DNA of 64,000 nucleotides, taken from contig JAJCXZ010000077.1 of assembly GCA_029263175.1 (NCBI GenBank), forward strand, positions 62,001 to 126,000. Direction: 5' to 3'. The position numbers and the translations under genes were made by a program. This document shows, one piece after another, positions 2,050 to 13,365 of the stretch. The notes under the pieces were generated by a model that saw nothing but the letters and a program-made list of their open reading frames with translations, did no database searches and was not told the DNA's origin. The DNA is from Acidimicrobiales bacterium (GTDB lineage Bacteria > Actinomycetota > Acidimicrobiia > Acidimicrobiales > Aldehydirespiratoraceae). How positions within the stretch are numbered: the first letter of the stretch is position 1; the number at the start of each line of letters is the position of its first letter.

Positions 2050-2074
2050 AGAGAGCGGGTCACGAGAATCGAAC
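2050..2074 (-). repeat. Copy of the tRNA-Gly 3' end (att-like direct repeat)
   Basis: This 25-base stretch matches 2775-2799, the 3' end of the intact tRNA-Gly gene plus four flanking bases, at 24 of 25 positions in the same orientation. The only mismatch is at 2061 versus 2786. Beyond it the tRNA similarity stops and no cloverleaf can be drawn, so this is not a second tRNA gene. A duplicated tRNA 3' end on the acceptor side of an intact tRNA is the usual scar of site-specific integration. Here it encloses about 0.7 kb with a single gene. Confidence 0.7.
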
Positions 2075-2084
2075 CCCTGCTGTC

Positions 2085-2699
2085 TCAGTCCCACAATGTC
2101 GGTGTGTAGGTCACGGGTTTCGGCGCGGGTCGGCCATGAGGCACCGGGCCGCACAATGACTCCAGCAAGCCGGGCCAATCGAAGGCGTCACTGATCTCGG
2201 AGGCCTTCAGTTCGACGAGACGACCGGGGTCGACGTACTGAGGGATGATGAGGTCGAGGATCTTCTCGATGTCGTTTCGGAATCGCTCGTTGGTGCTACG
2301 GACGCCGTCGGCCCGGAGTGGGATGTCGGGGCGAAGCCGCACGAACATGTCGTAGGTCTTGGACCAACGAGCCACGAGCGGTTTGACATCGAACGGATCC
2401 TCGCCACCCGTGGCCCTCAGAAAGTAGGCGAAGTTGTCGACCACGGCCCGATCGAGCACCAGCACATCGGCCCGGTTCCGAAGCTCCAGCTCTTCTCGGA
2501 TCTGGGCCATGATCACCCAGAGTTGCGCCTCGGGCGACGCCCCCTCATTCAGCCCCAACGGACTGAAACGCACCATCTCGCGCCCGACCTCTACGCTGCG
2601 ACCACTTCGTCCGACCGCCCCCGCGAATGAGTGCACGGCATTCGTCTTCCGCACCGAGTGCGAGCCGATGAAGGCAATCTTATGACCGGTCGACATCAC
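2085..2699 (-). CDS. AAA_28/NadR-like nucleotide kinase-fold protein with altered P-loop
   Basis: A 204-residue protein. The first strand leads into GSHSVRKTN, which sits where GxxxxGK[ST] is expected, but the Gly before the Lys is Arg (codon cgg). The segment VLVLDRAVVDNFAYF resembles the Walker B/DRS region of deoxynucleoside kinases and NadR-type kinases, and RSTNERFRNDIEKI is a plausible lid. The substrate is unknown. The start is one of two adjacent ATGs (2699 or 2696). The gene lies alone between a tRNA-Gly gene and a copy of that tRNA's 3' end, reading away from the tRNA. It may be the cargo of a very small integrated element. The Arg substitution makes normal ATP binding doubtful. Confidence 0.62.
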   Translation of the reverse strand: MMSTGHKIAFIGSHSVRKTNAVHSFAGAVGRSGRSVEVGREMVRFSPLGLNEGASPEAQLWVIMAQIREELELRNRADVLVLDRAVVDNFAYFLRATGGEDPFDVKPLVARWSKTYDMFVRLRPDIPLRADGVRSTNERFRNDIEKILDLIIPQYVDPGRLVELKASEISDAFDWPGLLESLCGPVPHGRPAPKPVTYTPTLWD

Positions 2700-2778
2700 G
2701 CCGGAACCTAGCGTCCCGCCGATCTCGATGCGTGTCCGTATCCCTGACCAGGGCTAACGCTCTGCTGTGGTGAGAGAG

Positions 2779-2849
2779 AGCGGGTGACGAGAATCGAACT
2801 CGCGTATTCAGCTTGGGAAGCTGATGTTCTACCATTGAACTACACCCGC
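2779..2849 (-). tRNA. tRNA-Gly (anticodon CCC)
   Basis: Read on the minus strand, the 71 bases fold as a cloverleaf. The acceptor is GCGGGTG paired with CACCCGC. The D arm carries AATGGTAGA. The anticodon stem TCAGC/GCTGA holds loop TTCCCAA, giving anticodon CCC for codon GGG. The T arm contains GTTCGATTC. The discriminator base is T and no CCA is encoded. The last 21 bases of the gene plus four flanking bases recur, with one mismatch, at 2050-2074. Confidence 0.95.
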
Positions 2850-2897: not shown

Positions 2898-3908
2898 TCA
2901 GTCGACGGGCGCGGCCCAGCGCAGCATGGTGCCGCCGTCGGGGTCGCCGGTGACTTCGCAGGTGCCGTCGACTTCGATGGCCCGGTCGACGAGGTTTGCG
3001 AGGCCACTTCGGCGTCCGGCGGTCTCGGGGAGTCCCCGGCCGTCGTCGCTGACGCGGATGGTGACGACGTCGTCGGAGATGGTCACCGAACAGGTGGCGG
3101 CGAACGCCTCGGCATGACGGGCGACGTTGGCCAGACCTTCACGAACCACCGCGCAACAGTGATCGTGGAGTCGTGCGGGGACACCGGTGTCGATCGGCCC
3201 GCGGAAGGTGACCGAGGGTTCGAAGCCGAGCGATGGTGTGAACGTCGCCGCGATCTGGACCAAGCGGGCCCGAAGGCCGGTGTTGTCTCGCGATGGGCCC
3301 GATGCCATGTCGAAAATGAGGGTGCGGATCGATCGGATGACTTCATCGAGAGTGCTTACGCTGCCGTCGATCCGGCGCGCCACTTCGTCGTCGGTCACGA
3401 AAGGGAGCGTGGCCTGAAGACTCATTCCGAGTGCGAACAGTTCTTGGATCACAGTGTCGTGCAGGTCTCGGGCAATGCGTTCGTGGTCTTCGGCGAGAAG
3501 CCGGCGCCGGGTCGCTTCGACCAGGCGCTGCTCAACGGCGTCGTGTTCGGACATGTCGCGGATGGCGGCGAGTGTGAGATCGCCGTGTCCGAGCGGAGAG
3601 AGAGCAATGCTCACCGGGAAGGTGAGGTCGCCGCGGCGAGCGCTGAGTCCGCGCCCGGCGCCCATCGGGCGACGACGGGGGGCGTCGGTGAATCCGGCCC
3701 GAAGCGCGGCGTGAGTGGCGGCGATGTCGGTCGGTACGAGAGCCTCGACGGACATGCCGACGAGGTCGGGATCAGTGATTCCGAAGAGGGCGTGAGCCTG
3801 GTCGTTGGCAGCCCGAATCACACCGGCCACGTCGACGAGGAGCAACCCGTCGGGAGAGGCATCCCAGATGTCGATCGGGGCAAGATCCTTGATGGGAAGG
3901 TCGCTCAC
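2898..3908 (-). CDS. PAS-HisKA_3 sensor histidine kinase (DevS/NarX type)
   Basis: A 336-residue cytoplasmic sensor kinase. A PAS domain occupies roughly residues 10-125 (PDGLLLVDVAGVIRAANDQA; LFGITDPDLVGMS). The HisKA_3 dimerisation helix follows with phospho-acceptor His in ERIARDLHDTVIQELFALG. The C-terminal HATPase domain has the N box REGLANVARHAEA and G box DDGRGLPE. There are no transmembrane segments and no GAF haem domain, so any sensing is through the PAS domain. It starts with GTG overlapping the stop of the preceding gene (GTGA). That gene and, before it, a DevR-like response regulator (4476-5141) are its likely operon partners. It should phosphorylate that regulator. Confidence 0.88.
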   Translation of the reverse strand: MSDLPIKDLAPIDIWDASPDGLLLVDVAGVIRAANDQAHALFGITDPDLVGMSVEALVPTDIAATHAALRAGFTDAPRRRPMGAGRGLSARRGDLTFPVSIALSPLGHGDLTLAAIRDMSEHDAVEQRLVEATRRRLLAEDHERIARDLHDTVIQELFALGMSLQATLPFVTDDEVARRIDGSVSTLDEVIRSIRTLIFDMASGPSRDNTGLRARLVQIAATFTPSLGFEPSVTFRGPIDTGVPARLHDHCCAVVREGLANVARHAEAFAATCSVTISDDVVTIRVSDDGRGLPETAGRRSGLANLVDRAIEVDGTCEVTGDPDGGTMLRWAAPVD

Positions 3909-6699: not shown

Positions 6700-7440
6700 A
6701 TGGCCACGCTCGGATTCACCTTCGGCACCATGGGTTCGGGGAAGTCGACCCAGGCTCTGCAGATCCATCACAATCTGCGTGCCCGCGGACTCACCACGAT
6801 CCTGACGACGCAACTCGATCGGGCGGACGGTCGCGTGTCGAGTCGCCTCGGGGTCTCCGCTGATGCCGAGGTCGTGGAGGCCGGTTCTGACCTCTTCGAA
6901 CTTGTTCGTCAGCGGGTGAACACCCTGGGTCGTGTTGATGCGGTGATCTGCGACGAAGCGCAGTTCTACCACCCCACACAGTGCGAACAGCTGGCCCGCG
7001 TGGTCGACGATCTCGGCGTCGATGTGTACGCATTCGGCCTCCTGACCACGTTCCAGGGCGTGATGTTCCCTGGTTCCGCGCGGCTCATGGAGCTCGCCGA
7101 TCGGCGCACCGAGATTCAAGTCGAAGCCCGATGTTGGTGCGGTGAACGCGCCACCCACAACGCTCGCTTTGTCGACGGCAAACAGGTCGTGTCCGGAAAG
7201 ATGGTCGTCGTCGGCGACACCGGCGGCCCGACCGCCGGCGAGGTCACCTATGACCTGCTGTGTCGGGCTCACTGGATGGAAGGCGCCGGCGCTGCTCGCG
7301 GCGCCCAACTCGAACTGCTTGACGATGATGTCGCCCGACTGGGCGACCACCCCGATCGGAGCGGACCGATCGAGGTTGATCCCGATCGGGTTCCACAACC
7401 CCTGCATGCAACTGCCAACACCTCCGGAGCCAACTCGTGA
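6700..7440 (+). CDS. tdk: Thymidine kinase
   Basis: A 246-residue type II thymidine kinase (thymidine + ATP to dTMP). Residues 4-14 hold the P-loop [24 protein letters not shown] carries the Walker B Asp and the catalytic Glu. [23 protein letters not shown] is the region near the thymine-binding lasso, and the zinc-binding CWCG with a later Cys follows. The tail past residue 200 is longer and looser than in typical Tdk. ATG 6700 is preferred because the P-loop should lie within the first dozen residues; an upstream in-frame ATG at 6637 would add 21 residues. dCTP deaminase overlaps its stop by 4 bases, so salvage and de novo dUMP/dTMP supply are coupled. Confidence 0.92.
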
Positions 7441-8000
7441 TCTTGTCCGATCGCACCATTCGCGAACAGCTTGATGCCGGTCGCATCATCATCGACCCAC
7501 TTGACCCCAAAGGGCTCCAACCGTCCTCGGTCGACCTGCGGCTCGACCGATGGTTCCGAGTGTTCAAGAACCACACGATGGGGCACATCGATGTGAAGAC
7601 GAATCTCGAGGAGCTGACCGAGCTGGTCGAAGCCGTCGATGACAACCCCTTCATGCTTCACCCCGGCGAGTTCGTGCTCGGCTCGACACTCGAGCGGGTG
7701 GCAGTGCCCAACGATCTTGTGGCTCGCCTCGAAGGCAAGTCGAGCCTTGGTCGTCTCGGCCTGCTGATCCACTCGACCGCGGGCTTCGTTGATGCGGGGT
7801 TCGATGGTCAGCTCACGTTGGAGCTGAGCAATGTGGCGAACCTGCCGATCACGCTCTATCCGGGCATGAAGATCGGGCAGATCTCATTCCAGCACATGAC
7901 GACGGCCGCCGATGTTCCCTACGGCGCAGAGTCGTTGAAGTCGAAGTACAAGAACCAGCAGGGCCCGATGCCCAGCCGTTACTGGGAGAACTTCGACTAG
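7437..8000 (+). CDS. dcd: dCTP deaminase (probably dUMP-forming)
   Basis: 187 residues, starting [17 protein letters not shown] with a GTG codon inside the tdk stop (GTGA). [12 protein letters not shown], the phosphate-binding [20 protein letters not shown] and the catalytic-Glu region [11 protein letters not shown] are all present. Length and the C-terminus ([18 protein letters not shown]) match the M. tuberculosis bifunctional dCTP deaminase/dUTPase closely. Direct dCTP to dUMP conversion is therefore likely, avoiding free dUTP. It acts as a homotrimer in the cytoplasm. Translational coupling with thymidine kinase makes a compact dTTP-supply operon. Confidence 0.93.
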
Positions 8001-12477: not shown

Positions 12478-13365
12478 CTACGGAGCAGTGATGGCGTAGG
12501 TCGAGAGATCGATGGTGCCGATGGCCTCGGCCACGGTCACCGTGTCCGCATAGCGAGCTCGTGCCTGCTCTTGGAAGTCGAGGATCACGCTCTCCACCAA
12601 CGCCCTCGAAACGAGACCGGCAGCCTGCTCGATGACAAGCGGGTCAGCGGTCGGGTGATTCTCGGCGGTGGCCGGACCAACACTCAGGATTTCGATCAGA
12701 TGCCAGCCGAACTGGGTCTGGACGGGCCCCACCACTTCGCCCGCTTCGCCCTCGTACGCAGCCGTCTCGAACTCCGGCACGAACGTGCCCGTGAGCTGGC
12801 AGCCGAGGTCGCCGCCATCGGGGCCGCTGGGGCCGACTGAGAGTTCCATCGCCAGCTCCGCGAAGTCTTCGCCGGCGGCGTGGCGGTCGAGGGCGACGAT
12901 GGCGTCAGCTTCCGCTTCGAGAAGGATGTGACTGCTGCAGAGCAGATCAGGCGGATCGAGCGGATCGCGGGTGACGGCCTCCGCCTCCGCCCATCGGCCG
13001 AGAATGATGCTTATGAGGATCTCCTCGACGAGCGTGTCGTGGTCGAGATTGGGTTGGCGGGCACGCAGTGCGTCCGCCGTCAGATCGGCGGAATCGCGAT
13101 CCTCGTCGGTTGGTTCGAGGCCAATCCGATCGGCTTCTTTCGTCATGGCGATTCGCTGGAGCCATGTGCTGACTTCGTCGGCGCGGACCTGAGCAACGGT
13201 GGCATCACCGAACTCGAGGATGCCCTCGAGTTCGGATCGGGTGAGCACCTGGTCATCGATCGAGGCGACGACGTCGTCACCGCCCGAGTCGCCACAGGCA
13301 GATGCGACGAGGGTGGCGGCGAGGAGCACCGCAGAAATGGTGAGGAAGCGACAACCGAGGTTCAC
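12478..13365 (-). CDS. Lipoprotein peptidyl-prolyl isomerase (parvulin/SurA-PrsA like)
   Basis: 295 residues. The signal peptide ends at the lipobox ASAC (residue about 24), followed by a Gly/Asp linker. An N-terminal chaperone-like helical region contains VVASIDDQVLTRSELEGIL. The parvulin domain spans roughly residues 135-235, with CSSHILLEAEADA, AGEDFAELAMELSVGPSG, GGDLGCQLTGTFVPEFETA and VVGPVQTQFGWHLIEI. It should help fold exported proteins on the outer face of the membrane. A C-terminal helix follows the isomerase domain, as in PrsA/SurA. It is preceded by tandem hairpins (13372-13404) that separate it from the nucleoside importer. Confidence 0.87.
   Translation of the reverse strand: MNLGCRFLTISAVLLAATLVASACGDSGGDDVVASIDDQVLTRSELEGILEFGDATVAQVRADEVSTWLQRIAMTKEADRIGLEPTDEDRDSADLTADALRARQPNLDHDTLVEEILISIILGRWAEAEAVTRDPLDPPDLLCSSHILLEAEADAIVALDRHAAGEDFAELAMELSVGPSGPDGGDLGCQLTGTFVPEFETAAYEGEAGEVVGPVQTQFGWHLIEILSVGPATAENHPTADPLVIEQAAGLVSRALVESVILDFQEQARARYADTVTVAEAIGTIDLSTYAITAP

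What the first reader, a model, noticed from the sequence alone, without database searches (positions are those of the whole stretch)
2050..2849. Miniature tRNA-Gly-bounded island carrying one kinase-like gene
A 25-base segment at 2050-2074 repeats the 3' end of tRNA-Gly(CCC) plus four flanking bases (2775-2799) with one mismatch and in the same orientation. The repeat lies on the acceptor side of the intact gene, which is exactly how integrated elements leave their ends. The enclosed 0.7 kb holds only a 204-residue P-loop protein and no integrase. It could be a satellite mobilised in trans, a decayed remnant, or a minimal cargo cassette. Elements this small at tRNA genes are rarely described.
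Basis: partly seen in the sequence, partly recalled or inferred. Interest (0 to 1): 0.6.

Follow-up and report, generated by a model that had tools for sequence, protein, structure and literature searches.

The report
One-gene insert at a tRNA-Gly gene
A 0.7-kb stretch holding one kinase-like gene sits between an intact glycine tRNA gene and a stray copy of that tRNA's last 25 bases, most likely a stripped-down remnant of a mobile island at a tRNA gene that, across this bacterial order, repeatedly collects small islands, several of them carrying toxin-antitoxin or anti-phage genes.

Summary
In detail: 2050-2074 repeats 2775-2799 at 24/25 bases, in the same orientation, on the 3' side of tRNA-Gly(CCC). 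Nothing else in the 4.4-Mb genome matches at 3 mismatches or fewer. The interval encodes one AAA_28 / NadR-kinase-like protein and no integrase. The site is an insertion hotspot in this order of Acidimicrobiia: second copies of the tRNA-Gly(CCC) 3' half, always downstream and in the same orientation wherever an intact tRNA is present, bound about 30 islands of 0.1-104 kb. Six carry the same kind of tyrosine integrase, three carry broken or partial integrase copies, and about a dozen of 0.1-3 kb carry none, with cargo such as HepT/MntA, AbiEi/AbiEii and Schlafen AlbA_2. The window interval is best read as one of the smallest members, a CIME-like remnant or 'additive' tRNA cassette. Limits: the repeat is shorter than usual (22-25 versus about 40-48 bp), no clean empty site exists (the nearest relative has a different gene there), and the kinase gene is a patchy single gene that elsewhere never lies at a tRNA repeat, so the gene is not itself a recurring mobile unit. 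Small tRNA-bounded cassettes are already published, including in this bacterial class.

The parts
2050..2074 (-). Displaced partial copy of the tRNA-Gly(CCC) 3' end (T-arm to 3' end plus 3-4 bases), the distal end of the insert
   Evidence: 24/25 identity; unique pair in the genome; homology to relatives G001 and G027 stops here
2085..2699 (-). Single cargo gene: 203/204-aa AAA_28 P-loop protein, NadR ribosylnicotinamide-kinase / thymidylate-kinase fold, altered Walker A GSHSVRKT
   Evidence: Pfam PF13521 E 8e-9; family alignment; AlphaFold pLDDT 82 and Foldseek hit to NadR, TM 0.70 by query
2700..2774 (.). Spacer between cargo gene start and tRNA 3' end; holds CTGGTCAG at 2744-2751, a motif common 9-14 nt after tRNA-Gly(CCC) in relatives
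   Evidence: only the ~18 nt just upstream of the start codon match the G001 copy
2775..2799 (-). 3' end of the intact tRNA plus flanking bases, the tRNA-side end of the insert
2778..2849 (-). Intact tRNA-Gly(CCC) gene, the presumed attachment gene
   Evidence: ARAGORN, Rfam RF00005 74 bits
1843..2037 (+). Left flanking gene, 64-aa cysteine-rich protein, also on this side of the tRNA in G001 and G027
2898..3908 (-). Right flanking gene, histidine-kinase-like protein, next to the tRNA in several relatives

Best explanation
The interval 2050-2774 is what remains of a site-specific insertion at the 3' end of tRNA-Gly(CCC). A tyrosine integrase of the kind found at this site in relatives would have recombined an element's attachment site with the tRNA gene, leaving the intact tRNA on one side and the displaced 3' end on the other. 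The element then lost, or never carried, its integrase; only a conserved nucleotide-kinase-like gene and the two ends remain (a CIME-like mini-island, or 'additive' cassette). Shown: the repeat, its position and orientation, the site variability, integrase-bearing and integrase-less islands at the same tRNA in relatives, and purifying selection on the cargo. Inferred: that an integrase made this particular insertion, and that decay rather than mobilisation in trans produced the small size.
For: Repeat far above chance and unique in the genome. Homology with G001 and G027 ends at the distal repeat. Three genomes share the left-flank gene and the tRNA but have three different contents between them. 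In the order, second copies of the tRNA-Gly(CCC) 3' half lie downstream in the same orientation in every locus with an intact tRNA. Integrases occur in G039, G204, G365, G066, G126 and G123; broken or partial integrase copies in G334, G222 and G271; none in about a dozen islands of 0.1-3 kb. Cargo: HepT/MntA, Schlafen AlbA_2, Fic, AbiEi/AbiEii, SDR, methyltransferase. The window gene is 97% identical in protein to G001's despite 37% change at four-fold sites, so it is maintained.
Against: The repeat spans only the T-arm to the 3' end (22-25 nt); other islands here mostly have 40-48 nt starting near the anticodon loop. The tRNA-proximal flank still carries a trailer motif shared with relatives that have no known repeat. 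There is no clean empty site, and G001 has a different gene between the same landmarks without a repeat. No integrase nearby; the whole genome was not searched for one.
Confidence: 0.62

Rival explanations
1. The repeat arose without an integrase, by illegitimate recombination or a small duplication of the tRNA 3' end, when a rearrangement moved an old resident gene (inherited in the genus) next to the tRNA.
For: The gene's divergence from G001 (0.37 at four-fold sites) is like that of the vertically placed neighbour ZnR (0.38), so it is not a recent import. G001 has an unrelated gene at the same spot with no repeat. The repeat is short and the tRNA trailer motif stays beside the tRNA.
Against: Downstream, same-orientation 3'-end copies recur at this tRNA across the order, which random duplication would not give; the insert end coincides with the repeat.
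Confidence: 0.22
2. It is an active minimal satellite or cassette that is excised and inserted in trans by integrases of elements using the same tRNA.
For: Small integrase-less islands with intact cargo genes and well preserved repeats recur at this tRNA and some lie in tandem; integrase-bearing elements use the same site in relatives.
Against: The kinase gene was never found next to another tRNA or between repeats in 38 other loci, nor in phages, plasmids or viral contigs; the window repeat is truncated; no integrase in the window.
Confidence: 0.12
3. The two landmarks are joined by an assembly or binning error of the metagenome-derived genome at a short repeat.
For: Relatives G001 and G012 hold the gene on other contigs; their records are metagenome-assembled and the window genome appears to be as well (111 contigs).
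Against: A 150-kb contig, interior position, a repeat with one internal mismatch, and composition in line with the surroundings make this unlikely; both ends would have to be false joins.
Confidence: 0.04

Closest known systems
Additive flexible genomic islands: gene cassettes ending in a repeat of part of a tRNA gene (Ca. Actinomarinales PMC7771536; Methylophilaceae tRNA-Lys, 330 bp-42 kb, 1-63 CDS, PMC10872708)
   Same: Small cargo next to a tRNA, marked by a short direct repeat of the tRNA end; variable content at a conserved place; Actinomarinales belong to the same bacterial class (general knowledge)
   Different: Other tRNA, other order, a single copy here rather than an array
CIME (cis-mobilizable element: island that lost integration and transfer genes but kept both att sites; PMC5704250)
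   Same: Two att-like ends, no integrase; relatives at the same site show intact, broken and absent integrases
   Different: Cis-mobilisation not shown; the distal end is shorter than the usual repeat at this site; a larger ancestor of this insert was not found
Islander-type tRNA genomic islands (PMC4383910)
   Same: Displaced tRNA 3' fragment downstream, same orientation; T-loop/junction crossovers are common (1836 of the islands in that database)
   Different: Fails that method's integrase and 2-kb minimum-length filters
NadR ribosylnicotinamide kinase domain / AAA_28 (cargo protein)
   Same: Fold and profile match
   Different: Stand-alone, about 18% identical to NadR, P-loop GSHS[VI]RKT instead of GxxxxGK[ST]

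Membership tests
tRNA-integrated genomic island (Islander definition, PMC4383910) | tRNA fragment displaced to the 3' side in the same orientation, reaching the tRNA end | tested here: met
tRNA-integrated genomic island (Islander definition, PMC4383910) | Contains a tyrosine integrase gene | tested here: not met
tRNA-integrated genomic island (Islander definition, PMC4383910) | Length 2-200 kb | tested here: not met
   725 bp between the repeats
CIME (PMC5704250) | attL and attR retained | tested here: inconclusive
   Two 25-bp copies are present, but relatives' repeats at this tRNA are 40-48 nt
CIME (PMC5704250) | Integration and transfer genes lost | tested here: met
   Only one gene and no integrase
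CIME (PMC5704250) | Mobilised in cis after accretion of an integrase-bearing element | not testable with these tools
   Needs excision assays
Additive fGI cassette (PMC7771536, PMC10872708) | Cassette next to a tRNA, ending in a direct repeat of part of that tRNA | tested here: met
Additive fGI cassette (PMC7771536, PMC10872708) | Same place, different content in relatives | tested here: met
Phage satellite / virus-borne cargo | Gene or relatives found in phage genomes or viral contigs | tested here: not met
   (no relatives; only weak PHROG profile matches)
NadR ribosylnicotinamide kinase (cargo protein) | Same fold | tested here: met
   Foldseek 8x7f, E 3e-7, TM 0.70 by query
NadR ribosylnicotinamide kinase (cargo protein) | Canonical Walker A with glycine before K[ST] | tested here: not met
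   GSHS[VI]RKT in this family; function as a nucleoside kinase not tested

The most novel reading that the evidence does not exclude
tRNA-Gly(CCC) in this order is the fixed insertion point of a cassette system: integrase-less one- or two-gene units, often toxin-antitoxin or anti-phage, inserted and exchanged in trans by tyrosine integrases of elements using the same tRNA, the window insert being the smallest gene-bearing unit seen.
Probability: 0.13. Interest if true: 0.65.

Novelty: new member of a known kind. Interest (0 to 1): 0.36.

Why it matters
Standard tRNA-island searches require an integrase and at least 2 kb (PMC4383910), so they discard inserts like this one. The survey suggests that such small inserts are common at one tRNA gene in one actinobacterial order and that several of them carry toxin-antitoxin or anti-phage genes. 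That makes the size and decay of tRNA islands, and how small cargo reaches such sites, directly countable.

Tried and rejected
Chance repeat: rejected. Copy of another tRNA's 3' end: rejected, no other match in the genome at 3 mismatches or fewer. Gene as a recurring tRNA-bounded cassette: rejected, none of 38 loci has a tRNA within 3.4 kb and only one has any tRNA on the fetched stretch; flanking repeats there are at or near chance level, and neighbours are not conserved. Virus or plasmid cargo: no hits. Known defence gene: no PADLOC hit. Clean empty site: not found; G001 has a 5'-3' exonuclease-like gene, G027 a 2.6-kb different content. The conserved CTGGTCAG trailer motif follows both intact tRNAs and displaced copies in relatives, so it does not decide which side is original.

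Full report
Observation. The tRNA-Gly(CCC) gene lies at 2778-2849 on the minus strand. The 25 bases at 2775-2799 recur at 2050-2074 with one mismatch and in the same orientation. In 200 shuffles of the left arm the best match was 18/25. In the 4.4-Mb genome no third place matches with up to 3 mismatches, and the reversed control pattern gives none.

What lies between. One gene, 2085-2699 on the minus strand, fills the interval. It belongs to AAA_28 (E 8e-9, above Pfam's cut-off) and resembles the kinase domain of NadR. An AlphaFold model (mean pLDDT 82) matches NadR (TM 0.70 by query) and thymidylate kinases. The P-loop is GSHS[VI]RKT, with arginine where the Walker A glycine is expected, and this is conserved in nearly all close family members (one has RKS); two distant AAA_28 proteins in the alignment have the usual glycine. 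A broader scan found 38 loci with 66-97% identity, mostly Acidimicrobiia with a few loci labelled Chloroflexi or Acidobacteria. None has a tRNA near the gene: the closest is 3.5 kb away, in one locus. None has convincing flanking repeats, and neighbours are not conserved. There are no relatives in phages, plasmids or viral contigs. The gene is therefore a patchy chromosomal single gene, not a typical viral cargo gene. Between the window genome and G001 the protein is 97% identical while 37% of four-fold sites differ: it is under strong purifying selection. That divergence is close to the neighbouring ZnR gene (38%) and below the histidine kinase (53%), so the gene is not a recent import from outside the genus, although its place differs.

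The site in relatives. In G001 (same genus) the same left-flank gene (98%) and the same tRNA are present, but a 5'-3' exonuclease-like gene lies between them; the kinase gene is on another contig. In G027 the same two landmarks enclose 2.6 kb of other content. Homology of the window with G001 and G027 runs through the ZnR stop codon and ends within about a dozen bases of the repeat at 2050. The base composition of the insert is like that of its surroundings. The 3' flank of tRNA-Gly(CCC) differs in nearly every relative. So this is a variable spot and the repeat marks the edge of the variable part, but there is no clean empty site.

An order-wide hotspot. Searching about 400 genomes of the order for the 3' half of this tRNA (the listings were cut, so counts are lower bounds) and reading the loci gave 30 same-contig pairs spaced 0.1-104 kb, 14 of them under 3.2 kb. 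In every locus with an intact tRNA the second copy is on the 3' side and in the same orientation. The copies usually start near the anticodon loop (about 40-48 nt). Integrase-bearing islands: G039, G204, G365, G066, G126, G123 (Phage_integrase in Pfam; G204's core-domain hit is just below the curated cut-off). A profile of these integrases finds a frameshifted copy in G334 and fragments in G222 and G271, and nothing in the window or in the islands of G017, G399 (1.2 and 7.0 kb), G326, G242, G085, G098, G349, G286, G185 (2.8 kb), G362, G109 and G041. Cargo of the small ones: NTP_transf_2 plus HepT-like, two Schlafen AlbA_2 proteins, AbiEi/AbiEii, an SDR, a methyltransferase, a pRiA4 ORF3-like protein; with broken integrases, Fic and DUF433/DUF5615. 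Within the window's own family only three of 51 genomes have a second copy on the same contig (G000, G017, G029), so such inserts are not frequent near the window genome itself.

Mechanism. The simplest account is integration at the tRNA 3' end, followed by loss of the integrase (or insertion of a cassette that had none), leaving a maintained cargo gene between two ends. Intact, broken and absent integrases at the same site make a decay series plausible. Two facts are uncomfortable. The window repeat reaches only from the T-arm to the end, which fits the T-loop/junction class of crossover described for tRNA islands (PMC4383910, PMC8371274) or a deletion trimmed to the stop codon of the kinase gene. 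And the tRNA-side flank still carries CTGGTCAG (2744-2751), a motif also found 9-14 nt after the tRNA in several relatives, although at a shifted distance; since the motif also follows some displaced copies, it does not settle the matter. A non-integrase rearrangement remains possible.

Comparison with the known. Elements that lost integration genes but kept both ends are called CIMEs (PMC5704250). [quoted passage not shown] Actinomarinales (PMC7771536) and, down to 330 bp and one gene, at tRNA-Lys in Methylophilaceae (PMC10872708). Islander rejects candidates without an integrase or under 2 kb (PMC4383910), which explains why such inserts are seldom listed. I therefore file this as a new member of a known kind; the order-wide hotspot is the more useful result.

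Noticed in passing
2085-2699 and loci L036-L073: The AAA_28/NadR-kinase-like family has a conserved non-canonical P-loop GSHS[VI]RKT (R in place of the Walker A glycine) and a patchy, mostly single-gene distribution.
   Followed up: partly
L074:2506-3420 (G001): A 5'-3' exonuclease-like gene found at this identity only in G001 (other relatives' best matches are 48% or less, apparently the usual paralog) occupies the same spot between ZnR and tRNA-Gly(CCC), its stop codon ending a few bases after ZnR; no repeat found.
   Followed up: partly
L181:8756-9995 (G399): 1.2-kb island at tRNA-Gly(CCC) holding only a HepT/MntA-like toxin-antitoxin pair between the tRNA and a displaced copy; a 7-kb island follows in tandem.
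   Followed up: partly
L190:208-3544 (G349): Tandem array of an intact tRNA-Gly(CCC) and three further copies of its 3' part, with a short-chain dehydrogenase gene between the first two; ARAGORN calls the first displaced copy a second tRNA.
   Followed up: partly
7437-8000 and L181, L182, L183, L195, L196: A dCTP deaminase-like gene lies within a few kb upstream of tRNA-Gly(CCC) in many members of the order, useful as an anchor for this site.
   Followed up: no
2744-2751 and tRNA-Gly flanks in L075, L079, L121: CTGGTCAG lies 9-14 nt (29 nt in the window) after tRNA-Gly(CCC), more often than expected by chance; role unknown.
   Followed up: partly
13047-13132: ARAGORN reports a tRNA-like hit with a four-base anticodon (caga) that Rfam does not support; probably false.
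   Followed up: no
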